From positions 124,227,901-124,291,900 of the forward strand of contig CM067360.1 of the NCBI GenBank assembly GCA_034401795.1: a DNA stretch of 64,000 bases, given 5' to 3'. Shown in pieces: positions 10,915 through 64,000 of this stretch. The notes beneath the pieces are model-generated. The model was not told where the DNA came from and did not search any database. It saw only the letters and a list, made by a program, of their open reading frames with translations. This DNA comes from Chaetoderma sp. LZ-2023a. Taxonomy: Eukaryota > Mollusca > Caudofoveata > Chaetodermatida > Chaetodermatidae. The translations under genes and the position numbers were made by a program. The first letter of the stretch is position 1; each line of letters starts with the position of its first letter.

Positions 10915-11112
10915 AATTGCTGTGCAGATCTGGACTAGAAATGGTGCTACTGAAGTGATACCAAATTCATCTGCTCCTTTACCATTCTTTAATTTTGAGA
11001 TGTACTGTTTTACTTCACTAGCTGTAATTGGAATTATAGATTGCTGGTTTCATGCAGATGTCTGGATGGCTTTGGCATCCTTCATAACGAGGGTGTTGTA
11101 TTCTTCTTCAAA

Positions 11113-24843: not shown

Positions 24844-26700
24844 TTAGTATTTGTCGATCATAGATTCCCTGGCAATCTTCTTAAAGGATTTCAGGTTTAA
24901 TATGCTATCGCGTATTTTTGTACTGGTGCTGTTCCCTAGTTTTGTGGCTGCTATTGTAATTCGTCGTTTTCCTATTTCTGTTCGTGTAAATTGAGTGTGT
25001 AAATTGTGTTTTGTCCTAGTGTTGTGTTTGTGGATGTCTGTGCTTAGTGTGAAATTGGAGGCTATGGATCGTGGTAATGTATTGTGGTGAAACTCCTTTA
25101 CAATGGTGTACATCTGTAGTTTGCCTATGTCCTTTAGTTTTAATAGCTTTTCTGACTTGAATATATTCTGGCCCTTTGCTGGTTTAGAAAAGAGTTTTAG
25201 TGCCTTTTTCTGTAGACTTTGTAGTTTTGTTAGGTTGCTTTTGTGTGTATTCGTCCAGATAGCGTTACAGTAGGTGAGATGCGGAAGAACAAGGGTGCAG
25301 TATAGAGTTTTAATTGTAGCTGGTGTCATGTAAGGTTTTAGTCTTTGTATGACACCTATGCCTCTTGCCACCTTTGCTGTTACCATCTCGATTTGTTTAG
25401 CCCAGGTCAAATGTTTATCCAAATATACTCCCAAGAATTTGGCAAATAGGGCCTCCTCAATTTCTTTTTTGTTTATGTAGATTTTTGGAATTTCATCTTT
25501 TTTTAGTTTGAGGTTTGTAAATAACATATAATTTGTTTTGCCAACATTCAGCGATAATTTGTTTATTGAAAACCAGTCAGTAATTTCTTCCATTTCCTTA
25601 TTTGTTTTTCTGTATAAGGTGTCTATGTTGTCATCGCAGCAAAAAGCATTTGTGTCATCAGCGAACAGTATTAGTGACATGTGCTTGCATATGTTAGGTA
25701 GATCATTCATGTAAAGAAGGAACAGCAATGGGCCAAGAATAGATCACTGAGGAACACCACAAGTTAATTGCCTGTTTTCAGAGTATATTTCATTATATTG
25801 TACGCATTGTGTTCTTTTACTTAGGTAGTTCTGGAACCAGGTGAGTGCACTGCCTCTTATACCATAATAAGCAAGTTTTTCTAGTAAGATCTGGTGGTTG
25901 ATAGTGTCGAAAGCTTTTGAAAGGTCCAAGAAGATGCCTATTATACTTTGGTTTTTTTCCAGTGATTCAATAATTTTTTCTGTCATTTCGGCTATTGCAT
26001 GCATTGTTGAATGTTTCTCACGAAATCCATATTGCGATTTGTATAAAATTGACTTTTTGTCCAGGTAATTTGTCAGTCGATTGTACATAAGGCGCTCTAG
26101 TAACTTGGAGAAAAGTGGAAGTATGGAGACTGGTCTATAGTTTGAGAAGTTAGTAGAATCCTTGGCTTTATAAATTGGTGTAACACGTGCTATTTTTAGT
26201 TTTGATGGGAAAATGCCTTGTGGTAGGGATAAGTTGCAAATGTGACTAAGTGGGATAAGGATATCCATAACACAGGTTTTATAAATGCGCCACTTAAAAC
26301 CATCGATTCCGGCACTTTTGGCTGGGTTGAGTTTGTTTAGAACGTTAAAGATCTCTTCAGTGCTAGTAGGGTTAACGAAGAATGATGATTGATAGCTGCC
26401 TGTAAGGTAATCAGAAAATTTTTTCTCGGATGTTGATTGAATTTTGTTCGAAAGTTCTGGTCCTATATTTACGAAATAATCATTGAATCCATTGGCAATT
26501 TCGAATTTATCGGTAATGACCTTATTCTTGTGAAGAAATTGTGTCTGTTGTGCCGTATTGGTCTTGTTTAAAAGTGATTTAATGGTTTTCCATGTCTCTT
26601 TTATGTCATTTTTGGACTGTTCAAATTTCTTGTGATAATATGTTTTCTTAGCTGTTTTTATTATTTGGTCTAATTTATTTCTATATTTTTTAAACTGAAT
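24844..26700 (-). pseudogene. LINE reverse transcriptase, one nonsense codon
   Basis: From about 26700 the frame carries the linker, then the RT: 'ARVTPIYKAKDSTNFSNYRP', 'SILPLFSKLLERLM', 'SQYGFREKHST', 'FLDLSKAFDTINHQIL' (first catalytic Asp) and 'LTCGVPQ' followed by TGA (25744-25746) where relatives have GSILGPLLF. Reading resumes directly with 'SILGPLLFLLYMNDLPN' and 'LILFADDTNAF' (catalytic FADD), then the thumb region 'KFLGVYLDKHLTWAKQI' and a C-terminal region to the stop at 24844. Apart from the single nonsense codon this part is open. Confidence 0.9.
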
Positions 26701-26710
26701 TTCATTGTAA

Positions 26711-27679
26711 TTAGTTTGACACTTGATAAAAGTAGGTATTTAATAAGTTAATGAAGTCTTTGGTATGACAACATTTCTGTTGCTGCAGATCAATATTGAA
26801 ATCACCCATAAGGTAGGCTGTTTTATTTTCCTTTTGTATTGTATCCAGAATTCTGCTCAAAGCTTCAATGAATTGTTTGTTGTCACTGTCAGGAGGCCTG
26901 TAGATTGTGCCAACAATTTTATTTCTACCTTTTTGAATCGGAATTTCGATAAATATTGTTTCAATGTATTCTTCCATTATGGAAAAGTTTTCACGCAAAA
27001 TGAATTGAATATTGTCTTTTATGTACATGCCTACACCACCTCCACCATCCTTGTTAATTATGTCAGATCTGTGCTTTTCGATAAATGTATAGTTATTCTT
27101 GTTAACTAGAGTAGTAGGTAAGTTTACTTTTAGCCAAGTCTCTGTAATTCCAATAATTCCAAACTCGTGTGCACTCATATCTAGGAAATTATTTAACTTG
27201 TCATTGTTCTTCAGTATCGATCGAGTGTTTGCGTGCATGAGTGAGAGTGCAATGCTTTCTTTACTGTTTGTTATAAAGTCATTAAATTGGCTTAGAAGTG
27301 TATAGTTACAAGTTTGTGGAGGTATGGATAAGTCAGTTCTAGCATCTTTTGAGTTGATGTCTCTATACGTGTGGGTGTTAAGTTTGAAGGGATTTAGAAT
27401 TAGGTCTTGTATGTGCTCTATGTAGTTATATTCAATATGTGGATTCATGATTGCAAGTGTGTAGTCAGCATCATCACTAATGTGATTGAAAGGGAATAAA
27501 GATTTGTTGCAGTTTAGACACCACCATGGCTGGTCATCTAACTCAAGATGGAGATAATCAGAAGCAGTGAGTTTAGAACATCTTAAGTGAACCCACTCCG
27601 AACACAAGTCGCATAATAAGGCTTTTTGATTAGTTCTAACAGGTCTCTTACAGGATGAGCAGGGGAATTTGGTTGGCAT
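26711..27679 (-). pseudogene. LINE ORF: PHD finger fused to truncated APE endonuclease
   Basis: The protein starts with 'MPTKFPCSSCKRPV' and a PHD-type finger: C-x2-C, 'LLCDLCSEWVHLRC' and 'WWCLNC', about residues 8-58. An APE-type endonuclease begins at about residue 135 with 'LMHANTRSILKN', 'GIIGITETWL' (catalytic Glu) and 'GGGGVGMYIK', then 'VGTIYRPP' and 'LMGDFNIDL' (Asp/Asn). The frame ends at about 26711, shortly after GDFN. The later catalytic strand and the SDH motif are missing, and the next recognisable sequence is already the linker to the RT. I infer an internal deletion of a few hundred bases near 26715-26730. PHD and endonuclease lie in one reading frame, unlike the two-ORF LINE at 9-15 kb. 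Confidence 0.85.
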
Positions 27680-27712
27680 GGTAAGGATAGAAGAAGAAAA
27701 AAGCCGAAACAA

Positions 27713-49378: not shown

Positions 49379-49551
49379 TTTCTCCTTCGATCAATACTCA
49401 CCATTCTGTTACTTCTGATATACAGCTGGCCCTGACAGCGGCTCTAGGATTATAGACTTAGAAAGCTTTACCGACTCCTGGGAACCGGGTACTCGGCTCC
49501 CAACTACCGAGTACCCGTTTACCATAGAGCTCATTCTTGTTTGCATAGCAA
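49379..49551. repeat. DIRS-A left inverted terminal repeat
   Basis: From 'tttctccttcgatcaatact' through 'caccattctgttacttctga', 'ctggccctgacagcggctct' and 'aaccgggtactcggctccca' to 'tgtttgcatagc'. The complement stands at about 56311-56475, nearly identical except for the outermost part and a few bases. Confidence 0.9.
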
Positions 49552-49666
49552 CAAGAGCAATACATGCTTTCTGCATTGAGGATTTTAGTGTTTTTTGTGA
49601 AAGAAAATCTAAGTCTTTAATCTGTGATAGTTTGTGTGTTCGTGAAAGGATTAACTAAAGGATACT

Positions 49667-49693
49667 ATGGAGAATACCGCCGAAGATAACCAG
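49667..49693 (+). CDS. DIRS-A Gag leader exon (predicted, 9 codons)
   Basis: ATG plus eight codons (MENTAEDNQ) end in CAG just before GTTGTA. DIRS-B has a leader of the same style at 63825-63875, also ending in a Gln codon before GT. A phase-0 acceptor TTATAG at 50458-50463 joins it to the cysteine-rich Gag start. The donor is weak and the proposal rests mainly on the comparison of both elements. Confidence 0.55.
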
Positions 49694-50463
49694 GTTGTAT
49701 CGTTCTTTATTATCCATAGTTAAAAGACTTAGGTCTCTAAATTTCGCTGTGTCGCATGTTCCAATTTCTGACCCCATAGAATCTGGGACGTGTGCTAACA
49801 ACGATATATGCCAGACGATCGCCTTCTTTAACCCCCAACAGGCGATCGGCAGATATGAAAATAGGTGTTATGCTACGGTATTTCTAACACGAATATCGGC
49901 TGACGTCGTTCTCCATAGGATCCGAGCGGGTGACGTCACACCCGGTCGCTCGGATGTTTATGTGAAGAAAAATTTTTCATTAATTCGCGCATCTTGTTCT
50001 GGGTGCTGCGTACTAAAAATGGTACCGGAAACTTAGAATGATCAAGTTTACGTGCGATCACGATCGGTTTGCAATGATCGGTGGTTTCAAAATTCTTGAG
50101 TAGATGCGTGGTCTGCGGTTTTACCGTGTGATACAGCAGTTTGTTATACATTTTGTTGTTTTCTTCACATATCGTGCTGCTTTCGTTAGGAGTATAATTT
50201 ATATTGATTAGTAAATATACCCCGAATGCTATGCGATATGATTCCTGGAGCCGTTACACATCCTGGAGGATCTATTATGGGTGTGTTTAATGCCCGCCTC
50301 GTTCTTGTCGTCATAATCAATGCGATCGTTGTTGTAACGTGGCGGGGTGGGGTGCGGGAGGGTTACAGTTAATTTATGAGTCAAATTATTTGAAAATTAA
50401 TTGTCTGCCTTCCATCCGGGTCTCGTTCCGCTTGTTTATTGTAGGTTTGTGCTTATGTTATAG
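49694..50463 (+). other. DIRS-A predicted intron, 770 bp
   Basis: GT at 49694-49695 and AG at 50462-50463 ('gcttatgttatag'). Length and position correspond to the 761-bp predicted intron of DIRS-B. Frames inside it, for instance 49695-50036, have no motif. Confidence 0.5.
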
Positions 50464-52597
50464 GCCAAGCCAGCCCCGCCATCATGTGACGAATGCCATA
50501 AGTTTGTCCGTGTCGTGTTCAAGGACCATGTCTGTTTTAGGTGTTCCCTGTGTAATATTGATCATAGGTGTAATGTTTGTGCAGTGTGGTCCGTTGAGAT
50601 GATGGTTAAGTTCCTTGCCAGAAGGACTTGGCTGGGTCTGACGCGGGGTCAGGCGGTCCGAGAGTAAATCGTGGAGCGCCCGGTTCGGCCGGTGGGGGTG
50701 TTCCACGTCCCCAGCTGGAGGTGGCGGAGATGGCACCGCCGGCGTGGTTTGGTCCGGCTATGCAGGGTTTTTCTGCATAGCGTTCTGCCCACGCTGGTGT
50801 CGTCCCTGCTACCAAAGGTTGGGGGGCAGTTTCTCCCCATGCCTGGTACGGATCCTGTCCTCGGACAGGATTCTGGACTGGTTACCGAGGGGGCCGTCTC
50901 GTACGGCCCCCTGGCAGTCCCGTCTGGCTTCGGCCAGACAGGTTTCTGTTTCTCTGCGGCCACCTCCGGGTGGTCCAGTAGCGGTGGCCGGTCCGTCAGG
51001 TGTGGGAGCCGTCCGCCAGGACGGTTCCACGGTTGACTCGTCTAGTGACGACTCTTCGGAGTCTGAAGACGAGGAGGCCGAGGAGGAGAGGTTGCTGCGG
51101 CCCGTGAAGCCGCAGGTGGAGAATATGGAGGTTGATTCCGTCCTGGACGGAACCGGCCTCCATTTGTCTGGTTTGGCGCAAGCCAGGTCAGCGGCTCCGC
51201 CTGTGGCTGAGGCAAATCCGTTACCGTGTACCGGTTCCGTGCGGCTTGGTTTGGCACCAGCCGTCACGGGAACGGTTGTGCTGGGCCGGGCGTGGTACTC
51301 ACCTATCTCGCCTGGTCCGGCAGTCGGACGTGGGGTGCCGTTGGCGCCCGTGTCCGGTTATGGTTCCGCGACTGCTACGGGTCCGTACGGTTTTCCGTGC
51401 GGACCTACCCCATGGACCGGAGTGTTTCGTGGGGTGGCGGCGGAACCGTGTGGTACCGGAGTGCCTGGCGTGTCAGCCGTGGCTCCTTGCCGGGAGGCCG
51501 TGGCTGGCAGACCCGTGAGCACGTCAACCGGTGACGTGTTTGCGGGGGTGTCTTCATCGGAGGTAGATTGGTCAGATGCTCTGGCGTGGCTAGCCAGGGT
51601 TGACCCGTCTGTGGTTTCGGCCACGGCCGATGAAGATGCGCCCCGTCCGTCGGTTGCATCGATCAGGACGGGGGTTTTGCCCGCGGCCCGGATCCAGTCA
51701 GTGGGACTGGATCCACGGTTCATAGAATTGTTGGATGCTATTTATAGCAAACAACTGATGACCAAGGGTCAGCTCCCTGCGGCCTCCAGGGAGGTGCGGG
51801 CAAGATGTCGTATTCCGCGGGGGGAATACGACAGGTATGGTGTAGTCCCGTCGGTCACGGAGGATGACCGATGGGTACTGGGCGTCCAGAGTGCCGTGGC
51901 GGGTCGCCCCGGTCCGGCACATGTGGACAAGTCTCAGGTACACCAGGAAGAAGTCCTGTCCCTATGCGATGAGGGTGTGAGGGCAGCGATGAGCGCTGTC
52001 AATCACTCTTATCGTCTCCTTCAGTCGGTGTGGGCTGAAGCGGGGGCAGGCCACCCTGTGCCACCTGTGGCGCTTTCATGTGTCAATGACGGCCTGGTGC
52101 TGTCGATGGACGCATTGGCAAGGGTGCAAGCGCGTGTGACGAAATCCAGGAGGCAAATGGTCATTGACCATATGCGTCCGGCTACGGCAGTCAGGGAGCG
52201 TCTTCTTGGGACGCCCCTGACAGGGCCTAGCATCTTCGGTGGCCAAGCGCGGGCCATCTTAGAGGATACCGCCAGTATCGCGCAGAATCGGTTAGCGGTA
52301 AACCTACAGCTAGAGCTAGTGCAGCAAGCGCACGCACTAGGGGCTGTGGGGAAACCGCTAACGGGACAACCTTCAAAGAAGCAGAAGAAGCATAAGGGCA
52401 AGGCAAAAGCTAGGCCTGTTGCGACTTCTGCTTCATCTGGGTTTTCGGAGCCGCCGCCGGCGAAGAAGCCCAGGAAGGTTGTAGAGGCACCTACCCTCCC
52501 CAATGTTGCTCCTGACCACCCTAGAGGCGGAAAGGGCAAGGGGAAGGGTAAGGGTAAGGCCTCAAAGGGCGGACAGAAGGGGCCGAAGCGTACCTGA
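50464..52597 (+). pseudogene. DIRS-A Gag-like ORF with seven-cysteine N-terminus, several frameshifts
   Basis: The start (50464 onward) encodes a module C-x2-C-x12-C-x2-C-x2-C-x5-C-x2-C with the segment VCFRCSLC, the same spacing as in DIRS-B. Frame breaks follow near 50630, a TAG near 50780 and a shift near 50990. From about 50990 to the TGA at 52595 one frame is open. It carries an acidic 'SSSDDSSESEDEEAEEE' stretch, a Gly/Val/Pro-rich middle, and the best-conserved part 'REVRARCRIPRGEYDRYGVV' plus 'TEDDRWVLG', which aligns with DIRS-B. The C-terminus is basic with GKGKGKGKASKGG repeats and an SKKQKKHKGK patch, suited to nucleic-acid binding. The role is presumed capsid/RNP protein. Confidence 0.75.
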
Positions 52598-54655
52598 GGG
52601 TACGAAAGCTCCCTTCATATCCGCCTGGACCGCGCCTGTGCGACAGGAACAGCGGTGCCAGTTATACCCGTCGTGCCTAGAACGAAATGGTTCTCTCTCT
52701 CGTTAAGAAAGAGTGGGGGGGGGCGGACTGCGAGCCGGACAACCCCGTTAGACGTCGAGGCGTCTATGGTGGGTGGAAGGCTCATGCGTTTCGTCGAGGC
52801 CTGGCAAGGTCTGACGTCAGACAGTCTGGTCCTGGGATGGTTATCCCAGGGTTACATGCCGGAGTGGTGGGACTTTCCACCACAAAATCTGTCTTTGGCA
52901 CCTGTCTGGACACCCGTACCAAGGGAGCCAGACAAGTTAGAAGCCGTTCAAAAGGAAGTGTCGGGTTTGCTTCTGAAGGGAGCAATAAAACCAGCAAACC
53001 GAAACACTCCAGGCTTCTATTCAAACATGTTCCTTGTCCCCAAGAGCACAGGGGGTGGAGACCCATACTCAATCTCAGGCCATTAAATTGGTTTATCCAT
53101 ACGCCTCGGTTCCAGATGGAAACGCCGAGGTCGGTAATGGTGGGATTGAGGAAAGGAATGTGGTGTGTATCGATCGATCTGAAAAATGCATATTTCCACA
53201 TTCCTATGAATCGGAGTTGGCACAGGTTTCTGAGATTTGCGTTTCAGAATCAAGTATGGGAGTTTACAGTTCTCCCATTTGGCCTGTCGACAGCTCCGAG
53301 GGTTTTCACAAGAGTGGTCCTTGCGGTGACAGCGTTTCTCAGAAAAGAGAACGTGGCGCTACACACCTACATAGATGACTGGCTGCTCAAGGCAGACTCG
53401 GCAGCCAGATTGAACGTGGATACTGCTCTGACTCTGAAGTTGCTTTCAGATCTACGCTGCATAGGCAACGAGGAGAAATCCGAGTTGACGCCCACTCAAC
53501 ATTTCGTTTATTTGGGGATGCGATTCGACCTCGAGGAGGGCAGGGTTTACCCGTCAGAGTCCAGAGTGGTGTCTCTGTTAGCCATCCTCAAGAGTTTTCG
53601 AGTGGGAAACCACATTCAGGTGAGGCGGTTCCTTCAGATGCTGGGCATGATGGTCTCCATGGAGCAGGTTATCCCGTATGCTGCTCTAATGCGAAGGCCT
53701 ATCCAGTTGTATCTGATGTGTTTGTGGAAACAGAGAACAGAACCCCTGTCAAAACTGGTGCCAGTTTTGGAGCCGATAATATCGCATCTTCTATGGTGGA
53801 AACAGCGTCAGAATCTCCTATTAGGGGTTTCGCTGCACCTACCCCACCCCCAGCTGTCCGTCTACACGGATGCATCGCTGGAAGGGTGGGGTGCCTGCCT
53901 GGGAGAACACCAGGTCTCGGGCACATGGACTCTCCCGGAGAGTCAGCTGCATATCAATCTGTTGGAAATGATGGCAGTGGAACTGGCGTTGGAAGAGTTC
54001 CTTCCGATGATCAGGGGCAAGGTGATATTGATACGGTCGGACAATTCGACAGTAGTATCATATATAAATCACCAAGGCGGGACCAGGTCGCCCATTCGGT
54101 GTATCAGGGTGTGGCACTTGATTCAATGGTGCAGGAATTACTCGGTTGTTTTGAAAGCAGCTCATATTCCTGGCCGATTGAACATTCTGGCGGATGCTTT
54201 GTCTCGCAGACAGAGAATCCTGCCAACAGAATGGTCCCTCAACCCTCCAGTTCTGCGACGGATCTTCGAGCATTGGGGCAAACCCAACGTGGACTTGTTC
54301 GCCACAAAGGAAAATGCTCAAATCATGACATATGTCTCGCCGATTCCAGATCCAAATGCCGTCGATACAGACGCTCTGGCGATAAGCTGGAGAGGGATGC
54401 ACGCTTACGCGTACCCACCCACCATTCTTCTACCGAATGTATTGGTGAAGGTCAGGGAGGAACCGTGTCTGGTCCTGCTAATAGCACCGTATTGGCCGAG
54501 CAGGGCGTGGTTCACGGATATTCTAGATCTGCTGGTGGAAAATCCTGTGCAGTTGCCCGAGATTCCGAACATAATCTCCCAGGCCAAGGGACGCTTCCTA
54601 CACGAGCGTCCCGAAATGTTCAAATTGACTGCGTGGATGTTATCAAACCAACGTT
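52598..54655 (+). pseudogene. DIRS-A reverse transcriptase / RNase H / methyltransferase-like region
   Basis: The beginning is in the same frame as Gag after its TGA: 'MVGGRLMRFVEAWQGLTSDS', 'PVWTPVPREPDKL' and 'GFYSNMFLVPKSTGG'. A one-base loss near 53052 moves the reading to the frame ending at 54810. There the RT shows 'RPILNLRPLN', 'VSIDLKNAYFHIPM', 'LPFGLSTAPRVFTRV' and the catalytic 'YIDDWLL'. RNase H follows with 'VYTDASLEGWG', 'NLLEMMAVELAL', 'IRSDNSTVVSYI' and 'IPGRLNILADALSR' (D-E-D-D set complete). Next is 'HWGKPNVDLFATKENAQ' with 'SPIPDPNAVDTDAL' and 'LLIAPYWPSRAW', the region described as methyltransferase-like in DIRS elements. It copies element RNA into DNA. Because of the frameshift it is not expressible as one protein. 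Confidence 0.9.
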
Positions 54656-55651
54656 CCACGTCGGAAGGCTTTTCTCGACAGGCTGCTGATTTCATCGCTG
54701 CTGCGAGAAGGAGGTCAACCTTCAAGTCATATAACAACAAGGTTAACAGATTTGCAGACTGGTGTGAAGAAAAGGGTATTGATACCTTTCAATCCACTAT
54801 CAGCAAATAGCAGACTTTCTCTGTGAGCTGTTCTTTTCAGGACTAGCTCCCGTCACAGTTGCTGGATACAAGTCAGCTTTGGCATCAGTTATCCCTTGTC
54901 TAGCCAACAGGGATAGTCCAGAGGTGGCCCAGTTAAATGTGATGTTGAAGGGAATGAGCAATCTCCGACCGAGACAACCGGTAGTCATTCCAGCCTGGAG
55001 TCTATCTTTAGTGCTTAATGTACTGGCCAAGCACCCTTTCGAACCGTTGCGTTCGGCTAGTCTAAAGCATTTGACTCTAAAGGCGGTATTTCTATTGGCA
55101 GCTTCCTCAGCTAGAAGGCGCAGTGAGATCCATGCGCTTTTGGCAGAGAGGAACCAATTATTGTTTCTGGAGAAGGTCTGCGTCTTCTGCCAAGGGCAGA
55201 GTTTATGTCAAAGAACCAATCTTTGAGATATCCCGGCAAACCGATCATTATACCGAAGTTAACTAGGTTTGATCGTGATGCCAGTGTCTGGTGCCCGGTC
55301 CGTGCTTTGACTAAGTACAAGAAACGGACTGACTCGTTACGGTCGAACGATAGACATCTGTGGATCTGCCATAAAAAGCCTTATGGCGCCGCATCCATGG
55401 ATACTATCTCTCGTTGGGTGGTCGAATGCATTCATACTACTCACGAGATGGCGACTGGGCACCAGGTTCAAGGCGTAAGGGCACACAATGTCAGAGGAAT
55501 AGCCGCCTCGACCGCCCTTTACAATGGTGTTCCGTTAGAGGACATCATGGCCGTTGCACAATGGCACTGTGAGTCCTCATTCACGGATTACTATATGAGG
55601 GATGTGTCAGACTCAGCCAATCCACTCGCTTTAGCTGTTTTGAAACGATAG
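54655..55651 (+). pseudogene. DIRS-A tyrosine recombinase, two frameshifts
   Basis: The N-terminal SAM-like part ('STSEGFSRQAADFIAAARRR', 'NRFADWCEEKGI') is fused in frame to the RT region and ends at TAG 54808. One base away the frame continues 'IADFLCELFFSGLAPVTVAG' and 'SARRRSEIHAL' (catalytic Arg). A second shift near 55149 leads into 'PIIVSGEGLRLLP' and 'FMSKNQSLRYPGKP', then 'HNVRGIAAST' (H-x-x-R) and 'SSFTDYYMRD' (tyrosine nucleophile), stop at 55651. All catalytic positions remain visible. This enzyme integrates the circular DNA copy. Confidence 0.9.
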
Positions 55652-56156
55652 TTAGTGACCACACTGCTTTTCACCCTTTTCTCACTTTGGTAAGAAAAGA
55701 ACCTAAAGCAGGCATGGTCAGGCGAGAGGATGTCAACCAGATTGTGTCACCGATGGCCGAACCGGTGAATGGTTGGAGGCGGTACGTCTGAAGTCCAATT
55801 ATCATAAGGTAATTCAATAAGTGAGAGTTTTTTGTATTATGTATATGTATCATGTTCATTCATCTTATATATTCATGCTCATTCCCAGGCTAATACATGG
55901 AATATGCAGGGAGTAGTTAACCCTCTTGGCATATTTGTGTTTTCAGGTGAGATACATGTTCGTTAGTTCTCTCCCTTTTCTTAGGAGGAAAAAGGGGGTG
56001 GGGGCGGGGCTGTGACGCGAATGTGATTTGGTTCCGTGAACTTGACGGTCCTTTTAGGTCTCCGTTAGTCAAGTTTGAAGTCTAAAATCTTTCTCCAAGG
56101 GGCAAAATTAGCATTTATGGCTTGCCCCTTCCCACCAGGTTACTGATCAAATCTGG

Positions 56157-56262
56157 TGTATATCAGAAGTAACAGAATGGTGAGTATTGATCGAAGGAGA
56201 ATGCAGGAAATGTCAATTTCCCTTTCTCCGAGATCTAACAATACTCACCATTCTGTTACGGA
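56157..56262. repeat. DIRS-A internal complementary region (ICR)
   Basis: The left half 'tatcagaagtaacagaatgg' to 'ttgatcgaaggag' is the complement of the left end (49382-49425). The right half 'gcaggaaatgtcaatttccc' to 'ctcaccattctgttac' is the complement of the right end. They meet at AAT (56201-56203), the trinucleotide that corresponds to ATT at the right terminus and TTT at the left. This is the joint expected in a DIRS circle. Confidence 0.92.
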
Positions 56263-56297
56263 CCCAGCCTCCCAGCCCCACGGAGGCAAGCCATAGT

Positions 56298-56509
56298 TTT
56301 CTCTTGTTTGGTGGCTATGCAAACAATATGAGTTCTATGGTAAACGGGTACTCTGCAGTTGGGAGCCGAGTACCCGGTTCCCAGGAGTCGGTAAAGCTTT
56401 CTAAGTCTATAATCCTAGAGCCGCTGTCAGGGCCAGCTGTATATCAGAAGTAACAGAATGGTGAGTATTGTTAGATCTTGGAGAAAGGGAAATTGACATT
56501 TCCTGCATT
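56298..56509. repeat. DIRS-A right inverted terminal repeat
   Basis: From 'gctatgcaaacaatatgagt' to 'aaattgacatttcctgcatt'. It is the inverse of the left ITR, with about 30 extra bases at the outer end, which are also present (complemented) in the ICR. Confidence 0.9.
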
Positions 56510-56569
56510 CTGTGGGTGGAGCTTAGCTAGAGATGGGCGGGGCATAGCTAAAACGTGAAAAGTCCATTT
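56510..56569. mobile_element. MITE-A copy split by DIRS-A, right part
   Basis: 'tgtgggtggagcttagctag', 'agatgggcggggcatagcta' and 'gtccattt' are the distal end of the MITE-A that begins at 49059. Confidence 0.88.
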
Positions 56570-57115
56570 CGAACTCCTGTTATGCTTCATTCGGTAGGCT
56601 TAGGCTTCAATGTTTTATAGAATGGGTGTGCTGAGGATAAGACAGCCACCGCTAATCAGAAAAATATCTCATATCCAGTCAGAAATGTGGGATCTGATGT
56701 AGTAAAGGTCATAGAGGGAACCATTTCTATCCATGCCCAGCCTAATTCTCACTAAGATCCACCCACTTTTTAACATGCTTGGAATCAATTTTAAATTTTG
56801 AAATCTGAATATCCTGAATCTATAATTCAAGGTAGCTAGCTATACGCATCAGCTGTAGAATATTTTTTAAGGTAATTTAACTGGAGCTACGACAACAACA
56901 TCCTCCACCAAATTTGTTAAAAAAATAAAGATCAGTTCATCTTTTAATGTAATTTCAATTTATTTTGATTGTGATATCAGTTAACAAGTGATGTATTTTG
57001 ATTTTGAGTTAGGCAGCCATGTTTTCCAATCCAATTATGTTCAAAATATTCAACAGTGCATTTCATTTTGTTTTGGAAACAAATTATTTCTGAGCTGTAC
57101 TGTCATCCGTAGTAG
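56570..57115. other. Spacer between the two DIRS elements
   Basis: AT-rich, no gene. It contains 'acaacatcctccaccaaatt' and 'agttcatcttttaatgtaat', also present in diverged form near 41983-42050, so it is probably an old shared repeat. Confidence 0.5.
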
Positions 57116-57345
57116 AATAAACGAAATCTAGGATTTCTTTTTTCACGAGAGAGTTGATACTTACCTCCCTAATACTTTTGATATTGCTAAATATTCGCTT
57201 TCACTCAATAAACACTCAGATTAAAACAGTTAGGCGCCCCTAGTGGGCAGGGAGTCAGAGCGTAGTCTGGCGGATGCCAGCCCCACCACCGCGCATGCGC
57301 AGACTAGCACTTCCTCTGACTAGATTATTGGCTGACACACATGCA
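57116..57345. repeat. DIRS-B inverted terminal repeat (3' end of element)
   Basis: Outer part 'aataaacgaaatctaggatt' to 'cacgagagagttgatactta'. Inner part 'gactagcacttcctctgact' is answered inverted by 'gaggaagtgctagtc' at the window's right end. Confidence 0.85.
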
Positions 57346-57402
57346 ACTATTAAGAGCCTGAAGACCGAGCCTCTGTGGGGTGGAGAGGCCGGGTCCGTAT
57401 CT

Positions 57403-57503
57403 AGGGAGGTAAGTATCAACTCTCTCGTGAAAAAAGAAATCCTAGATTTCGTTTATTTCACTTCAAGAGTATACTTACCTCCCTAATACTTTTGATATTG
57501 CCA
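57403..57503. repeat. DIRS-B internal complementary region
   Basis: 'gggaggtaagtatcaactct' to 'gatttcgtttatt' is the exact complement of the low-coordinate terminus. It is followed directly by 'tcacttcaagagtatactta', which by the logic of DIRS elements should be the complement of the other end outside this window. 'tacttacctccctaatactt' occurs on both sides (57162 and 57472). Confidence 0.88.
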
Positions 57504-58032
57504 GAATTCGAAAGTGAATCTGGCGGGAGGGAGGCGAGGTCAAAAGACCAGCTCATCCCAATACGCTTTTCTGCGTTTAAGGCACTTAAACTTCTGAAAC
57601 TGTAAGAAAAAACAGTCAGGATTTGACTAACCATCGGATAACACGACCGATGTATGAGAGATGACCGAATGTCATATGCGCTCCCCCCCCCTCCTTCCTG
57701 GGAGGAAGAGTCGACTGACCTCAATGTCCTATACGCTCTCTACGTACAAGTGCCATGTACTACAGGACAGAGACGAAAAAGCTCCATTTTCGTAACTCTC
57801 AACAATGAACCACACAAATACACAAACCATCACCATATTAATAACGGGTAATCGTGACAATACAATCAACAACGGACAACACATGAACAAGACTGACCTT
57901 GTTGAAAATGGCTGCTGACATCATCTTCCCATCGGTAAAGACTGATGCAGGCCCAAAAAAGTGGGTGTTTCCATAAATTAATTGTGATATATATAAGTAA
58001 TGAGGAAATCACCTCAAAAAATATAAACCGAT

Positions 58033-59040
58033 TTATTTTTTCAAAACCGACAAGGCGAGAGGATTAGAGGTGTCACGGAGATAATGGTCTGTAAAACTTG
58101 ACTCACAGTGCCACTGAGCCACCGACATAATATCATCCACAGGGACCCCATTAAATAGGGCCGTGGATGTCACTACGCCGCGGACACTGTGAGCCTTGGC
58201 CACGTCAACCTGCTTCCCGGTGGCGGATCTATGGCAAAACTGAATGCATTCCACAATCCACCTGGAAATGGTGTCCTTAGAAGCCCTCCCATGGGGTTCA
58301 ATATATGACAACCATAACGCTGACTGGTCGGTGCGCCATGCCGCCGTACGTTGTTTGTACCGGCGCAGCGCCCGGACGGGACACCATGCTTTAGAATTAG
58401 GATCATATCTAGTTAAAGCAGGCAAAATAATAGGTTGACCTGGATATTTCAACGACTGATTTTTAGCCAAGAAATTAACCCTAGGTAGCAGCTTAAGGCC
58501 TTCCCCTGAAACCACAAAACGGTCATCCTCGGCTGATAAGGCATGAATCTCACTCCTACGCCTAGCCGAGGCCGCAGCAATTAAAAACACAGTCTTCAGT
58601 GTTAATAGTTTCATAGAAATGGAACTAAGTGGTTCAAAAGGCTTATCACCTAGTACTTGAAGCACTAGCGATAAACTCCAAGACGGAATCACAGGAGGAT
58701 TCCTTGGTCTTAGATTGCCCATGCCTTTAATTAATACATTCAATGTATTTACTTCATCACTTCCCCTCTTAGCCAAGCAAGGAATAACAGACATTAATGC
58801 TGACTTATAACCAGCAATAGAGTTAGGCTTGAGGCTATAGGCATCATAGAGGTGACAGAGGAAATCAGCTACTACTTGAATAGATGAATCCATTGGATCA
58901 ATACATCTTTTTGAGCACCATTCTGCAAATCTGTTGATTTTATAATTATATGCTCTGGAGGTTGACCCCCTCCTGGCTTTGGCCATAAACATGGCTGCTT
59001 GCTCAGAAAAGCCCTCCTTAATTCTAGATTCCTTGACAAC
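58033..59040 (-). CDS. DIRS-B tyrosine recombinase
   Basis: The domain starts at about 59035 with 'SRIKEGFSEQAAMFMAKARR' and 'INRFAEWCSKRCID', then 'SIAGYKSALMSVIPCL', 'SARRRSEIHAL' (catalytic Arg), 'VSGEGLKLLPRVNFLAKNQS', 'HSVRGVVTS' (H-x-x-R) and 'SSFTDHYLRD' (tyrosine nucleophile), stop at 58033. It is uninterrupted. Its frame is -1 relative to the RT frame and, unusually, stays open far upstream, to 60969, right through the RT region. Expression may be by frameshift or internal start. In DIRS-A the N-terminal part of this domain is in frame with RT, so a single-base change in one of them altered the layout. It acts in integration of the circular DNA. Confidence 0.93.
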   Translation of the reverse strand, partial: VVKESRIKEGFSEQAAMFMAKARRGSTSRAYNYKINRFAEWCSKRCIDPMDSSIQVVADFLCHLYDAYSLKPNSIAGYKSALMSVIPCLAKRGSDEVNTLNVLIKGMGNLRPRNPPVIPSWSLSLVLQVLGDKPFEPLSSISMKLLTLKTVFLIAAASARRRSEIHALSAEDDRFVVSGEGLKLLPRVNFLAKNQSLKYPGQPIILPALTRYDPNSKAWCPVRALRRYKQRTAAWRTDQSALWLSYIEPHGRASKDTISRWIVECIQFCHRSATGKQVDVAKAHSVRGVVTSTALFNGVPVDDIMSVAQWHCESSFTDHYLRDTSNPLALSVLKK

Positions 59041-61058
59041 ATCCACGCAGTCAATCTGAACATTGACGGATTGTTGTGAAGGGCCTTGCCCTGGAAGATA
59101 ATATCGTCCATCAGAGGCAGAGGAACCGGATTGCAGACCAGAAGGTCCAGCAGATCCGTATACCATGATCGGCTTGGCCAATCCGGGGCGATCAGAAGCA
59201 CTTGGCATTCCTCTTGTCTGATTTTCTGAAGAATTTTTGGAATCAGGATTGCTGGAGGGAATGCGTATGCATACATTCTCCCCCAGCTGATAGCTAACGC
59301 ATCTGTTGCGAAAGCGCTTGGATCCGGAATCGGAGAGACGTACGTCGTCATCTTCGCATTCTTCTTCGTTGCGAACAAATCGATGTTGGGTTTCCCCCAA
59401 TGGTCGAACAGACGATCCGCCACACATTGATTTAGTTGCCATTCCGTGGGTAAAACACTCATCCTTCGGCTCAATGAGTCTGCAAGCAGGTTTAACCTTC
59501 CCGGAATATGAACTGCTTTCAAGGTAATCTGGTGATCCAGACACCAACATAGCAGTTTCCATGTCATCATACAGAGACTGGGCGACTTCGTTCCGCCCTG
59601 GCGGTTTATGTAAGTCACAACTGTTGAGTTGTCTGAACGAATAAGAACAATCTTGCCCTGAACTTTCTGTAAGAAATGTTCCAGGCCCAGGACTACTGCT
59701 CTTAGCTCCAGTAGATTTATATGTTCCTGTGACTGTTCCAGATTCCAAAGCCCTGATATCGTGGATTCTTCCAGGCAAGCTCCCCAGCCCTCCATCGATG
59801 CATCTGTATACACAGTCACCTGAGGGTGGGGAGGGGTTAGCAAAACCCCCGGTAAGAGATTCTCTGTATTCAACCACCATTGCAGGTGGTGAATCAGAGG
59901 CGCCAACACTGACACATTCGAGTCCAGCGAACCTGTACTCTGGGTCCATTGTGTCATGAGAAACAACTGGATCGGCCGCCTGCGTAAGGCGGCCTGAGGA
60001 ATGACTGGTTCCAACGAAACCATCAACCCCAGCATTCTCAAGTAAACCCGTGCCAGGACATGACGACTGTCGCACACTGACTGAATCAACGAGATGAGTA
60101 TTTGAACCCTCTCCTGAGTAGGATAAACATATCCTGTCTCCAGATCGAAGAACATCCCCAGGTAAACAAACTTCTGGGATGGAGTCAGCTCTGATTTTGG
60201 GAAATTGATCACCCAGCCCAAGTCTGTGAGAATTTTCAAAACAATCTCCAGATTGGCGGACAAACTTTCCCGGGTGTGCGCTTTCAACAGCCAGTCGTCT
60301 ATGTACGTGTGGACTGCTATGCTTCTCCTGCGGAGGTATGCTGTGATCGCAAGAACCACACGGGTGAAAACCCGAGGAGCCGTGGAAATTCCGAAGGGCA
60401 ACACCCTGAATTCCCACTGTCTGCCCTGGAATGCAAATCTCAGGAAGCGACAGAAACTCCTGTGGATGGGGATGTGGAAATAAGCGTCCTTCAAATCTAT
60501 CGACGCCGTCCACATCCCCCTCTCCAACCCTGCCAACACCGAGCGCACCGTTTCCATCTTGAAACTGGGCGTCTCGATGAACTTGTTCAATGGCTTGAGG
60601 TTGAGAATCGGTCTCCACCCACCGGTGCGTTTTGTTACCAAGAACAGGGTTGAATAGAAGCCCGGACACCTTTGTGCCGGCTGAATAGCTCCTTTTTGTA
60701 CGAGGGAATTTATCTCCTCCTCGATACACAACCTTTGATCTGGATCTCTCGGAACGGGAGTCCAGATTGGCACCAGAGACAGCCGCGACGGCGGGCCTGT
60801 CATCCACTCTGGATGATACCCCACGGAAAGCCATCGCAAGACTAAACGGTCCTGAGTTAACCGTTCCCACTCTTGCATGTGGTCGGCTAGCCGGCCTCCC
60901 ACCGGTCCACCTAGGGACCGCGGTGGACACAAGGCATGCAAGAGCGGCACTGTCTCCGTCGCCATACACACCGGCGTGGTCCTTACCGCGGTAAGCGCCC
61001 TGTCAGGAACGATAACCACGCCCAGATCCTCGCGCGACCCGCCCCGCCCCGCGCGCAC
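58872..61058 (-). CDS. DIRS-B reverse transcriptase / RNase H / methyltransferase-like protein
   Basis: The open frame overlaps the end of Gag by 56 bp; the first ATG in it is at 60965. RT: 'PIWTPVPRDPDQ', 'GFYSTLFLVTKRTGGWRPIL', 'ASIDLKDAYFHIPI', 'LPFGISTAPRVFTRV' and catalytic 'YIDDWLL'. RNase H: 'VYTDASMEGWG', 'NLLELRAVVLGL', 'IRSDNSTVVTYI' and 'IPGRLNLLADSLSR', the complete D-E-D-D set. Then 'HWGKPNIDLFATKKNAK', 'SPIPDPSAFATDAL' and 'LLIAPDWPSRSW', the methyltransferase-like part. Homology ends at 'TAWMLSRN' (about 59040); the remaining 55 codons are out of frame with the recombinase. Length without that tail fits DIRS pol. Confidence 0.93.
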   Translation of the reverse strand: MRAGRGGSREDLGVVIVPDRALTAVRTTPVCMATETVPLLHALCPPRSLGGPVGGRLADHMQEWERLTQDRLVLRWLSVGYHPEWMTGPPSRLSLVPIWTPVPRDPDQRLCIEEEINSLVQKGAIQPAQRCPGFYSTLFLVTKRTGGWRPILNLKPLNKFIETPSFKMETVRSVLAGLERGMWTASIDLKDAYFHIPIHRSFCRFLRFAFQGRQWEFRVLPFGISTAPRVFTRVVLAITAYLRRRSIAVHTYIDDWLLKAHTRESLSANLEIVLKILTDLGWVINFPKSELTPSQKFVYLGMFFDLETGYVYPTQERVQILISLIQSVCDSRHVLARVYLRMLGLMVSLEPVIPQAALRRRPIQLFLMTQWTQSTGSLDSNVSVLAPLIHHLQWWLNTENLLPGVLLTPPHPQVTVYTDASMEGWGACLEESTISGLWNLEQSQEHINLLELRAVVLGLEHFLQKVQGKIVLIRSDNSTVVTYINRQGGTKSPSLCMMTWKLLCWCLDHQITLKAVHIPGRLNLLADSLSRRMSVLPTEWQLNQCVADRLFDHWGKPNIDLFATKKNAKMTTYVSPIPDPSAFATDALAISWGRMYAYAFPPAILIPKILQKIRQEECQVLLIAPDWPSRSWYTDLLDLLVCNPVPLPLMDDIIFQGKALHNNPSMFRLTAWMLSRNLELRRAFLSKQPCLWPKPGGGQPPEHIIIKSTDLQNGAQKDVLIQWIHLFK

Positions 61059-63063
61059 CTCGGTGCACGGGCGGCTGCCTGGCTGACGGCGGCTGAGGAG
61101 CCTGCGCCCCCCTCACTGCTGGCCGAATCGCACGCGGCCGAGGCCGGCGCTGCGACGGCGGCTGGCCTCTGACTTGGCCAGCACCACCTCGAGCCTGCAG
61201 GGGACGATACGCAGGGGCCGCGGCGCGAACGTTAGCACGACGCAGTACCTCAAACTGTTCGCGCAGCGCCCTCTGGTTATTCACCAGGGTGACCGTCTCC
61301 TGGAGGTGGCGACATCCCTCACCTCCAAAAAGACCAGGACCCGTCATAGGCGTACGGAGTAGCCTATTATACAGGTCCTGAGACGGGCACAGATTGTCCA
61401 GGGCAAATGTGCGTCTTGCCCTGACACTCCTGGTCACCGCCCGCGTCATACAGTCCAGCGCCAGGTTAATACCATCCTGGATGGTTCGCTGGACCGCGAG
61501 CGGGCCTGGCTGGCGCGATGCGGATGCCGTTACTACCCCCTGTAACAGCTGGGAGACGTGGGACAGAGCGGCAATCGAAGCCCTCCCACTCTCCTCCGCA
61601 TCACGCAACGCGGTATTCGCCGAACGCAACGCGTTCGCGCACAAGACCCCCGCGTCAGAACGGGATCCTGGCCGCGTATCCTCACCCAAAGCCGCGCGGT
61701 CATCCACGCTGGGCTTGGGTACCACACCGTACCGCTGGTAGTCCAGGGGCACGATGCGACAACGCTTGGCCACCTCGCGAGGGGCCTTCGCGAGACGTCC
61801 ACTCGTGTTAATGGACGCCTCCGCCGCCTTGAACATGTCAACGACATGCTCCGCCAGCGGCAGAGAAGGCATAGCGTTAGCAGTTGGTTTCCCAGCTAAC
61901 CACGGCGTGTGAACACGGTGGCTAGCCGACTGCTCCACGGGCAGATCAGGCCTAACGCTCACCAACCACTGGCAAGCGTCATACCAATCCTCCTCCGTGG
62001 CTAACTGCGAGCGCTCTACAAGACGGGGTCCTTCGTCTTCCTCCTGAGCGCAAGCAGTACTAGACGGCGGGTACGCCGATACACCTGGCAAGCCAGGGAA
62101 AACATGCGGGCCTGACAGCACCGGCATGAGAATATCACTGGTTTGACCAGGAGCAGGCACCGCGGTAGAGCGCGGGGTATACATAGCCCTACCACGGGCC
62201 CGGCCAGCACCAGCTACACTCTCGGCAAGCCGAGGTATGCGGTACCGCTGGCCATCAGCAGCGCCCTGGGCCACCACCTGAACCGCGGACCTTACTCCAG
62301 GGTGAGTAATACCGTGGAAAAAAGCGCCTGTATTCCCCGCGAGGGGTGCACAAACGTCTTCATCCATGTCCGCGTCGTCAGACGGCGACCCCAGCAGGTA
62401 ATCCTCATCACCCTGGTCAGAAAGATTAGACCCCGGGTCAGCAAAGAGAGCTAACCCGGGCTGACCAGGAGCGGTGCCATAGGAGGTACTGGCCACCGCG
62501 GCGTGCGGATACCCCTGGACTGATAAGCAGCCAGCGGGTTCCAGCGACAACCGTCCACGGTCCCCTATCGGCGCGGCAATAAGCCTGCTGCCAGGGCCGT
62601 GGAACGCCCCCTCTAATGGGGCCACCTCTGAATCGTCGGACAACGGAAGCGGACTAAGGAAAATCGATCCAGAGGCGGGGATTACCTGCTCCGAAGCCGA
62701 TGAAGAGGACAATAAAGGATCTGGTCCAGGAAGCATGCCACGAAGCAACCCTGGAACCAAATCTTTTATTGCCCTCCTCATCTCTCCCAACATCTCGGTC
62801 CGAAAGGTCTCCATATCCACCGCGGACGAGACCTTCCCCTTACCCTTCTCACTTACAACCTCTCGTTTCCGCTTCATCTTCTTCTCCTCCACTACCACCT
62901 TGTCCGTCGCCTGTAAGCAGCACAAGAATTCGGACATTAATTCGCCCCCCCAGTGCTTACATATGTCACAATTAATCAATGGACCACAAGGGCTACATCT
63001 AAAACACAGATGCGGCCAGAACTTCACAAGCATAAAACGTCCACAGGACGCGCAACCCGGTCC
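61003..63063 (-). CDS. DIRS-B Gag-like protein, main exon
   Basis: The frame is open from 63129, but the acceptor 'cctttgccctgtttcag' ending at 63064 predicts the exon start at 63063, giving 686 codons plus 17 from the leader. The N-terminus has C-x2-C-x12-C-x2-C-x2-C-x5-C-x2-C, a seven-cysteine module. It is followed by a basic 'KKMKRKREVVSEKGKGK', an acidic and Ser/Pro-rich middle, 'REVAKRCRIVPLDYQRYGVV' with 'SVDDRAALGED' (shared with DIRS-A), and an Arg/Gly/Pro-rich tail with RGG-like repeats, suited to binding RNA. Likely structural/RNP protein. No stop or shift is seen. Confidence 0.85.
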   Translation of the reverse strand, partial: GPGCASCGRFMLVKFWPHLCFRCSPCGPLINCDICKHWGGELMSEFLCCLQATDKVVVEEKKMKRKREVVSEKGKGKVSSAVDMETFRTEMLGEMRRAIKDLVPGLLRGMLPGPDPLLSSSSASEQVIPASGSIFLSPLPLSDDSEVAPLEGAFHGPGSRLIAAPIGDRGRLSLEPAGCLSVQGYPHAAVASTSYGTAPGQPGLALFADPGSNLSDQGDEDYLLGSPSDDADMDEDVCAPLAGNTGAFFHGITHPGVRSAVQVVAQGAADGQRYRIPRLAESVAGAGRARGRAMYTPRSTAVPAPGQTSDILMPVLSGPHVFPGLPGVSAYPPSSTACAQEEDEGPRLVERSQLATEEDWYDACQWLVSVRPDLPVEQSASHRVHTPWLAGKPTANAMPSLPLAEHVVDMFKAAEASINTSGRLAKAPREVAKRCRIVPLDYQRYGVVPKPSVDDRAALGEDTRPGSRSDAGVLCANALRSANTALRDAEESGRASIAALSHVSQLLQGVVTASASRQPGPLAVQRTIQDGINLALDCMTRAVTRSVRARRTFALDNLCPSQDLYNRLLRTPMTGPGLFGGEGCRHLQETVTLVNNQRALREQFEVLRRANVRAAAPAYRPLQARGGAGQVRGQPPSQRRPRPRAIRPAVRGAQAPQPPSARQPPVHRGARGAGRVARGSGRGYRS

Positions 63064-63824
63064 CTGAAACAGGGCAAAGGACAAGGAGTATGAGCAACTA
63101 GTTAAGCTTAGAAACTCAATCCAACTCAAGGAGAAGGAAAACGATCATAAAGATCAATATACATCAAAAACCAGCCTAGCGCTTGAATTGCTAATAAATA
63201 CATAGCCAGCTGATTATGACGTCATAAATCCCGTGACAGGAAAAATTCGATCCCAACAAAACATCCAAGTGCAAAGACGAATTGTATGCTGAATGGATAA
63301 GTTGACTACACAACCATCAGATACATATAGATAACTCTTTACTGGCAAAAATGTTAATTATCTCCCTTTGATTGTTTACAATAATTAACATCACCACATT
63401 ATCATAACTAGATACCTGACACTTTGTATAGACAAACCATCCAACGTGACGAACCGGAAACTCCACCACCTGCACGCCTCTTAACTCTCTCCACCTCAAG
63501 GGGAAGGAATTGGAACAAGAGGGCAAAGTGAGAAGACCTTTATATCAGGCCTCCAACTCACTGGGCATAATTTTTCATATGGTTAGATAACCTAACAGTG
63601 TTAGTAGGAAATGGAACCATGGTGGAGAGAATACTAATTCTCTGGTACTGTGACGTCACAACCTAGCGTCATACAGACCTGTGGACAGAAACAGAAAGAG
63701 AAATTAGTCCTAGGTAGCACCGAGTTGACCTAAACCAACTAACTAAGGCGCTTATCACGGTAAACGCGAGTCCCGGAAACACAATACACCGGGAAGAAAA
63801 CTCGCTAATTTTACTAGAAGTCAC
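63064..63824 (-). other. DIRS-B predicted intron, 761 bp
   Basis: GTGACT at 63824-63819 and TTTCAG at 63069-63064, with a pyrimidine-rich tract before the acceptor. Removing it joins leader and Gag in phase 0. The frames inside (63317-63526) have no motif. Confidence 0.6.
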
Positions 63825-63875
63825 CTGATTTAAAGGTCCTCCGTCCTCCTGTGGCGACGTATTCCTATCCGCCAT
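63825..63875 (-). CDS. DIRS-B Gag leader exon (predicted, 17 codons)
   Basis: ATG at 63875, then 'MADRNTSPQEDGGPLNQ', ending in CAG before GTGACT. A similar leader stands at 49667-49693 in DIRS-A. Without splicing the frame continues into the intron and stops near 63669. Confidence 0.6.
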
Positions 63876-63946
63876 CCAAAAAAGTGACTAACACTCCAAA
63901 CAAACACCACTTAAACAGTTTAAGAGAGCGAAAAAGCTATTGAACA

Positions 63947-64000
63947 AAAAAACATGTGTGATCTCTTTGCCAATAATCTAGCAAAGAGGAAGTGCTAGTC
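63947..64000. repeat. DIRS-B second ITR, beginning only
   Basis: 'ccaataatctagcaaagagg' and 'aagtgctagtc' are the inverse of 57302-57345 with a few differences. The rest is outside the window. Confidence 0.85.

What the first reader, a model, noticed from the sequence alone, without database searches (positions are those of the whole stretch)
49667..63875. Two diverged DIRS elements share a short leader exon, a 5' intron and a seven-cysteine Gag module
In DIRS-A a 9-codon ATG frame ends CAG|GT and in DIRS-B a 17-codon one ends CAG|GT. The next coding block in each begins after an AG in the same phase (0), with intron lengths of 770 and 761 bp. Both blocks then show C-x2-C-x12-C-x2-C-x2-C-x5-C-x2-C with exactly equal spacing, although most other Gag residues differ. 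Introns in DIRS-like elements have been reported, so the intron as such has precedent. The shared position next to a previously unremarked (to me) zinc-binding-like module suggests an old, selected arrangement, perhaps separating spliced (Gag) from unspliced RNA.
Basis: partly seen in the sequence, partly recalled or inferred. Interest (0 to 1): 0.72.

Follow-up and report, generated by a model that had tools for sequence, protein, structure and literature searches.

The report
DIRS retrotransposons with conserved Gag intron
Two families of jumping genes carry the start codon of their Gag protein in a tiny separate exon, about 760 letters before a cysteine-rich, zinc-finger-like segment, and because the intron between them is kept in thousands of genomic copies, it may separate the message that makes protein from the RNA that is copied.

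Summary
The anatomy is real. Both leaders, both GT-AG introns (770 and 761 bp, phase 0) and both seven-cysteine modules lie where stated; the modules are homologous (0 of 20,000 shuffles score as high). In DIRS-A a TAG stop directly precedes the module; in DIRS-B no ATG opens its frame. In the unnamed 2.44 Gb host genome, 28 of 28 DIRS-B and 30 of 30 DIRS-A copies examined keep ATG, GT and AG. Of 20 further DIRS loci fetched (of 74 found), 10 hold the module and 7 of these a phase-0 leader. Leader-plus-intron donor words number 5,595 (B) and 4,486 (A); spliced-junction words 0 and 0. I think spliced RNA makes Gag and only unspliced RNA is reverse transcribed, much as reported for plant BARE. 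Splicing itself is not shown: no RNA data. The built-in acceptor parallels the one that Abascal et al. inferred for the DIRS sequence behind mammalian LAP2alpha. New variant of a known kind.

The parts
49387..49534 (.). DIRS-A left inverted terminal repeat (partner 56328-56475)
   Evidence: 97% complementary arms of 148 nt
49667..49693 (+). DIRS-A leader exon coding part, MENTAEDNQ, ends CAG|GT
   Evidence: ATG kept and no indel in 30 of 30 copies examined
49694..50463 (+). DIRS-A predicted intron, 770 bp, GT-AG, ends in TAG in frame with the module
   Evidence: GT and AG kept in 30 of 30 copies examined, with indels inside; 4,486 donor words in the genome, 0 junction words
50464..50667 (+). 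DIRS-A second exon, 67-codon frame with TAA
   Evidence: open frame listed as 67 in 148 of the 150 scored hits
50485..50580 (+). DIRS-A seven-cysteine (plus His) module
   Evidence: AlphaFold2 pLDDT block means 73-76 in residues 11-40
50642..52597 (+). DIRS-A main Gag open frame, another frame from the module
   Evidence: 31% identity to DIRS-B Gag over 298 residues
52687..54810 (+). DIRS-A pol: RT, RNase H, weak Dam-like methyltransferase
   Evidence: Pfam
56157..56259 (.). DIRS-A internal complementary region
   Evidence: inverted repeats I2-I4
56328..56475 (.). DIRS-A right inverted terminal repeat
63969..64000 (.). DIRS-B left inverted terminal repeat, runs past the window end (to about 64150-64160 in window numbering)
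   Evidence: 97% inverted match to 57150-57332
63825..63875 (-). DIRS-B leader exon coding part, MADRNTSPQEDGGPLNQ, ends CAG|GT
   Evidence: open 51-nt frame in 28 of 28 copies examined
63064..63824 (-). DIRS-B predicted intron, 761 bp, GT-AG
   Evidence: 5,595 donor words, 0 junction words
61003..63063 (-). DIRS-B second exon: module and Gag in one 686-residue frame with stop
   Evidence: open in 65 of 65 scored copies (best of 62,701 candidates)
62959..63054 (-). DIRS-B seven-cysteine (plus His) module
58872..61058 (-). DIRS-B pol: RT, RNase H, weak Dam-like methyltransferase
   Evidence: Pfam
58033..60969 (-). DIRS-B open frame whose 3' part is the presumed tyrosine recombinase
   Evidence: weak Phage_int_SAM match, below cut-off
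57397..57510 (.). DIRS-B internal complementary region
57116..57332 (.). DIRS-B right inverted terminal repeat and ICR partner

Best explanation
These are Dirs1-like retrotransposons whose Gag start codon sits in a 5' leader exon. Transcripts start in or near the left terminal repeat (inferred). The host spliceosome removes a roughly 760-nt intron, joining the 9- to 18-codon leader in phase 0 to a Gag block that opens with a Cys7-His module (inferred from sequence; not seen in RNA). That spliced RNA would be the Gag mRNA. Unspliced RNA offers no AUG from which the whole module can be read, and it alone is reverse transcribed and integrated, probably because the intron holds a packaging or reverse-transcription signal next to the donor, as retroviral psi does (inferred; the retroviral parallel is recalled). 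Shown: anatomy, homology, conservation between families, and that no intronless junction was found. Inferred: splicing, the sorting, the signal in the intron, and zinc binding.
For: In DIRS-A a TAG stands directly before the module in its frame; in DIRS-B 27 codons upstream are open without ATG. ATG, GT and AG are kept in 28 of 28 B and 30 of 30 A copies examined. A B subtype (4 of 28) has a changed leader, six substitutions plus a frame-neutral indel pair, yet keeps ATG, 51 nt and the donor. Phase-0 leaders in other families: MAERVTSPQEGLGPLNQ, MSKHGKSPEEGPGPSHQ, MSDAAKSLEDAPGPSHQ, MEGADDNQ, MENTAQDNQ, MDNNEKPLVELEDSSPNK, MEEKGKSSQGQ. Control: such a leader lies 700-800 bp upstream of 248 of 5,700 random anchors against 6 of 9 module loci (binomial 5e-7, or 3e-4 counting four lineages; the distance window was set after the lengths had been seen). 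Junction words 0 and 0 against 5,595 and 4,486 donor words. Alignment of B with L068, L079 and L073: identity .404 in the 5' UTR.637 leader.546 intron.635 module.
Against: No RNA evidence. Zero intronless copies is also what no splicing would give. The DIRS-A donor is weak by a generic matrix. No leader was found in L077, L072's is decayed, L074's 5' part was not fetched. The leader scan gave other phase-0 candidates at other distances in L068, L069, L077 and L079, and other ATG-donor pairs were not scored in A and B. In the pair B-L073 the 5' UTR is as similar as the intron (64.2 against 62.9%). RNA structure in the intron is not convincing: z -1.38, 8 of 100 shuffles fold as well, covariation term +1.69. 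In the DIRS-A copies sampled the spliced product would mostly be 76 residues, not Gag. AlphaFold2 models are weak (mean pLDDT 62 and 45).
Confidence: 0.7

Rival explanations
1. The intron is real and spliced, but there is no special sorting signal: spliced RNA is simply exported and translated while unspliced RNA is what gets copied, or spliced copies are too rare to see.
For: The counts alone (junctions 0 and 0; donors 5,595 and 4,486) do not say at which step spliced RNA is lost. RNA structure in the intron was not convincing.
Against: Spliced RNA would keep both terminal repeats and the internal complementary regions (all outside the intron), so nothing obvious in the known repeats bars it from being copied; in the four-family alignment the intron is more conserved than the 5' UTR, though not in the pair B-L073.
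Confidence: 0.2
2. There is no splicing. The leader is a short upstream reading frame that regulates translation, and Gag starts downstream of the module or at a non-AUG codon.
For: Unspliced leaders give frames of 18 (A) and 68 (B) codons; in DIRS-B TTG codons lie in the open stretch before the module; the DIRS-A donor is weak; no intronless junction.
Against: The module is conserved as protein although no AUG opens it; an upstream frame need not keep phase 0, GT, AG and a 737-789 bp distance in several families; in DIRS-A the TAG before the module blocks starts further up in that frame.
Confidence: 0.08
3. The leader-module is a product in its own right: the 76-residue protein of DIRS-A, rather than the front of Gag, is what splicing makes, and the leader may also use other acceptors.
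For: 148 of the 150 scored DIRS-A hits list an open frame of 67 codons (two of them with an earlier TGA; best 150 of 39,410 candidates); the family has at least 4,486 donor words.
Against: In the related loci L064 and L078 the module frame has no stop in the 150 codons read and in copy L059 it runs 465 codons into Gag, as in DIRS-B, so the stop looks like a later loss in an amplified, possibly trans-mobilised lineage.
Confidence: 0.1

Closest known systems
Dirs1-like (DIRS order) tyrosine-recombinase retrotransposons (PMC3266345, passages)
   Same: Gag, RT/RNase H/methyltransferase and YR; inverted terminal repeats with internal complementary regions; reported in molluscs among other eukaryotes.
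   Different: Its main text has 0 occurrences of words beginning intron, splic, zinc or cysteine; here a 5' leader exon, an intron and an N-terminal Cys7-His module recur.
BARE1/BARE2 of barley (LTR retrotransposons; PMC3735527, abstract and outline)
   Same: Works alike in proposal: a spliced RNA encodes Gag while another RNA pool is packaged; a Gag-deficient subfamily (BARE2) lives off BARE1, as the Gag-split DIRS-A lineage may live off intact relatives.
   Different: Unrelated element with LTRs; shown by RNA work there; BARE is one open reading frame, whereas here the start codon itself is in a separate exon.
DIRS Gag exons in mammalian TMPO/LAP2alpha and ZNF451 (PMC4495291, parts 1 and 2 of 3) and LAP2alpha-type Gags of Xenopus DIRS (PMC9210276, passages)
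   Same: A DIRS Gag block directly preceded by a splice acceptor; the authors of PMC4495291 infer that the colonising sequence carried an alternative acceptor and a polyadenylation signal.
   Different: Vertebrate DIRS, in Xenopus with a LAP2alpha domain predicted in all families; no LAP2alpha match in the two window Gags at E <= 1 in Pfam, and no PDB sequence match for 465 residues of DIRS-B Gag.
Gag zinc motifs of other YR retrotransposons: Pat1-like (PMC4157794, passages and section 7) and a DIRS1-type element of Ectocarpus with Gag and Zn-knuckle (PMC3537659, passage)
   Same: A cysteine-rich, zinc-type motif in Gag of a YR retrotransposon.
   Different: The passages seen describe no seven-cysteine N-terminal module and no leader exon; Pat1-like elements have split direct repeats.

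Membership tests
Dirs1-like retrotransposon | Inverted terminal repeats and internal complementary regions | tested here: met
   DIRS-A; DIRS-B
Dirs1-like retrotransposon | RT and RNase H | tested here: met
   RVT_1 above cut-off in both; RT_RNaseH above cut-off in A (25.4 of 24.8 bits), just below in B (22.5)
Dirs1-like retrotransposon | Methyltransferase (Dam-like) domain | tested here: inconclusive
   PF05869 E 0.018 (A) and 0.0046 (B), below the curated cut-off
Dirs1-like retrotransposon | Tyrosine recombinase | tested here: inconclusive
   Only weak N-terminal Phage_int_SAM matches in B, best E 0.0046, below cut-off; HSVRG and a late HY read by eye, motif recalled; the corresponding part of A was not scanned (the two tries failed on coordinates)
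Pat1-like retrotransposon | Split direct repeats | tested here: not met
   Terminal repeats are inverted
Spliceosomal (GT-AG) intron | GT and AG ends with reading frame kept across the junction | tested here: met
Spliceosomal (GT-AG) intron | Spliced transcripts | not testable with these tools
   no RNA data; genomic spliced junctions 0
LAP2alpha (DIRS Gag) domain, Pfam | Profile match | tested here: not met
   no match at E <= 1 for either window Gag (HMMER's filters drop most weak matches); a genome-wide search did not complete
Retroviral CCHC zinc knuckle | C-x2-C-x4-H-x4-C (recalled) | tested here: not met
   module spacing is C-x2-C-x12-C-x2-C-x2-C-x5-C-x2-C; no CCHC family among Pfam hits of Gag or module
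Treble-clef or zinc-ribbon zinc finger | Knuckle, hairpin, helix with four ligands (recalled) | tested here: inconclusive
   Both models show hairpin then helix (A: E14-19, E22-27, H37-41; B: E9-15, E18-23, H34-37), but pLDDT is low and Foldseek on the A model gave 0 of 120 matches at E <= 0.001

The most novel reading that the evidence does not exclude
Dirs1-like retrotransposons carry a conserved intron that gates their life cycle: splicing creates the only AUG-started Gag with its Cys7-His module, and retention marks the RNA as genome, with no exception seen beside some ten thousand donor words of two families. The built-in acceptor before Gag makes these elements pre-fitted exon donors, which would explain how DIRS Gag was captured twice as alternative 3' exons in mammals (TMPO and ZNF451).
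Probability: 0.4. Interest if true: 0.78.

Novelty: new variant of a known kind. Interest (0 to 1): 0.62.

Why it matters
How a retrotransposon divides its transcripts between translation and copying has been shown for few elements (the BARE abstract, calls it a major question), and in the papers I opened not for DIRS. Here the division can be read in DNA and tested by one RT-PCR. It also supplies, in a recently active element, the kind of acceptor that Abascal and colleagues had to infer for the DIRS sequence behind LAP2alpha. It bears on annotation too: gene models of DIRS Gag that start at the first ATG of the long frame would miss the leader and cut the module.

Tried and rejected
Rejected or empty: module against Pfam (only PHF5, E 0.0043, for A, below cut-off) and against PDB sequences (7 matches at E <= 10, best 0.38); Foldseek of the A module (0 of 120 at E <= 0.001); Rfam on 49380-64000 (0 matches); relatives of DIRS-B pol in viral contigs (none); conserved RNA structure in the first half of the intron (not convincing). 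A first consensus fold used the wrong strand or place for L068 and L073 and is discarded. I considered that the DIRS-A stop was peculiar to the window copy; 148 of the 150 scored hits list the same 67-codon frame. I considered families that lack the module: 10 of 20 fetched loci show none, but L070 reads N there and L063 loses similarity to A abruptly at that point; the other eight (L065, L066, L067, L075, L076, L080, L081, L082) were not resolved, so loss in some families is possible. L083 (5' stretch only) showed no module. The profile was built from 10 module rows, 8 of them from the loci it then searched, so only its hits on L073 and L074 are independent.
Full report
What was checked. The two 67-residue module stretches share 24 identical columns and are homologous: no shuffle of 20,000 scores as high. 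By protein, DIRS-A and DIRS-B share 62% over 540 residues of pol, about 30% in the main Gag region and 43% over 46 residues of the module.

Why splicing is the likely reading. In DIRS-A the codon before the module is TAG, the intron's own last three bases, so no start upstream in that frame can reach the module. In DIRS-B 27 codons are open upstream but hold no ATG. The first ATG in the DIRS-B frame lies inside the module; the L068 and L079 modules have no methionine there. The leader supplies an ATG in phase. Other ATG-donor pairs were not scored for A and B, and the scan of the fetched loci listed further phase-0 candidates at other distances in L068, L069, L077 and L079; the leader is preferred because its peptide, phase and distance recur.

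Copies of the same families. For DIRS-B, 65 of 65 scored Gag hits are 99-100% identical and open (the best of 62,701 candidates), so the family was active recently. I examined the 5' end of 28 of these 65, one being the window's own: 28 of 28 keep ATG, GT and AG. Twenty-three have the window leader, one differs by one residue, and four have another leader and 5' UTR with the same leader length, frame and donor. For DIRS-A I examined 30 of the 150 scored hits: 30 of 30 keep ATG, GT and AG, none has an indel in the leader, and every one has at least one indel in the intron against the window copy. These 30 were picked by module identity, so their module conservation is biased; leader and intron are not chosen that way. 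Spliced-junction words (30 bases, up to three mismatches): B 0, A 0. Donor words (15 leader plus 15 intron bases, same tolerance): B 5,595, A 4,486. Reversed-pattern controls were 0 in these four searches. The donor words do not show that the rest of each intron is intact.

Other families. A pattern for HTYIDDW with isoleucine codons that A and B do not use there found 74 places. I fetched 20 of the 74 with their 5' parts and one more in part. Ten of the 20 hold the module by tblastn or profile; four of these have all seven cysteines in the exact spacing (L068, L069 with a stop inside, L078, L079). Seven of the ten have a phase-0 leader: L064 with an intron of 737 bp, L068 766, L071 765, L073 769, L078 770, L079 789 and L069 529 bp. 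L072 has a decayed leader, none was found in L077, and L074's 5' part was not fetched. These copies are old and several are broken. L071 and L069 are about 47-67% identical to DIRS-B in the pol pieces aligned, decay included, so the arrangement is older than the split of these families. The families are not all independent: L078 and L064 group with A, and L068, L079 and L073 with B. Against random anchors the enrichment is 6 of 9 against 248 of 5,700, with a distance window set after the lengths were seen; counted by lineage it is weaker, 3e-4.

The intron as a signal. In an alignment of B, L068, L079 and L073 mean identity is .404 in the 5' UTR.637 in the leader.546 in the intron (blocks of .45-.63 in the first half.25-.60 in the second).635 in the module and .61-.65 in Gag. 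In the pairs A-L064 and B-L068 the intron is as similar as the coding exon (84.7 against 80.6% and 85.1 against 82.1%), but in B-L073 the UTR is as similar as the intron (64.2 against 62.9%). That fits, without proving, a cis-acting function next to the donor. Structure prediction does not add to it (z -1.38, 8 of 100 shuffles as good; covariation term +1.69). The terminal repeats lie outside the intron, so splicing would not remove them; the lack of intronless copies then needs either no splicing or exclusion of spliced RNA before integration.

The module. Across families the pattern is close to CxxC..F....F..H.CxxCxxC.....CxxC..W: seven cysteines and one histidine, enough for two zinc ions. 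Rows L064, L071, L072 and L077 lack one or more of these. AlphaFold2 gives a hairpin between two cysteine pairs and then a helix in both window modules, a treble-clef-like order (recalled), but confidence is low (mean pLDDT 62 and 45) and no solved fold matched the A model at E <= 0.001. Zinc binding is inference.

DIRS-A is partly broken. Its module frame is listed as 67 codons in 148 of the 150 scored hits, two of them with an earlier TGA; one hit has 190 and one 465. In L064 and L078 the frame has no stop in the 150 codons read, and in copy L059 it runs into Gag. The amplified A lineage may depend on Gag from relatives, as BARE2 does on BARE1 (PMC3735527, abstract); that is inference.

What is known. 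Six literature searches on DIRS and one on BARE listed no paper that, by title, start of abstract or the passages I opened, describes a 5' leader intron or a seven-cysteine Gag module in DIRS elements. Only open-licence papers are held, and most listed papers were not opened; introns in some YR elements are known to me from recall only. Gag zinc motifs as such are known in Pat1-like elements (PMC4157794) and in a DIRS1-type element (PMC3537659). The nearest published idea is the inference of a carried splice acceptor for the DIRS sequence in TMPO and ZNF451 (PMC4495291). I could not test homology with vertebrate DIRS; neither window Gag matched LAP2alpha in Pfam at E <= 1.

Verdict. Real, old, conserved anatomy; splicing likely but unproven; sorting plausible; a new variant of a known strategy.

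Noticed in passing
L017, L022, L025, L027 against L001 (5' ends of DIRS-B): A DIRS-B subtype has a different 5' UTR and leader up to a sharp boundary just before GGACCTTTAAATCAG, then is nearly identical: looks like a recombinant 5' end.
   Followed up: partly
window 50464-52597; hits: The closest DIRS-A copies encode the leader-module as a 76-residue product split from Gag; possibly a trans-mobilised lineage.
   Followed up: partly
window 24844-27712 and 9031-14771 (minus): Long frames that look like LINE-type elements (reverse transcriptase-like and PHD-like residues, by eye) on the minus strand.
   Followed up: no
genome G000: DIRS-B and DIRS-A donor words occur 5,595 and 4,486 times, far more than the low numbers that PMC4157794 gives for YR elements.
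   Followed up: no
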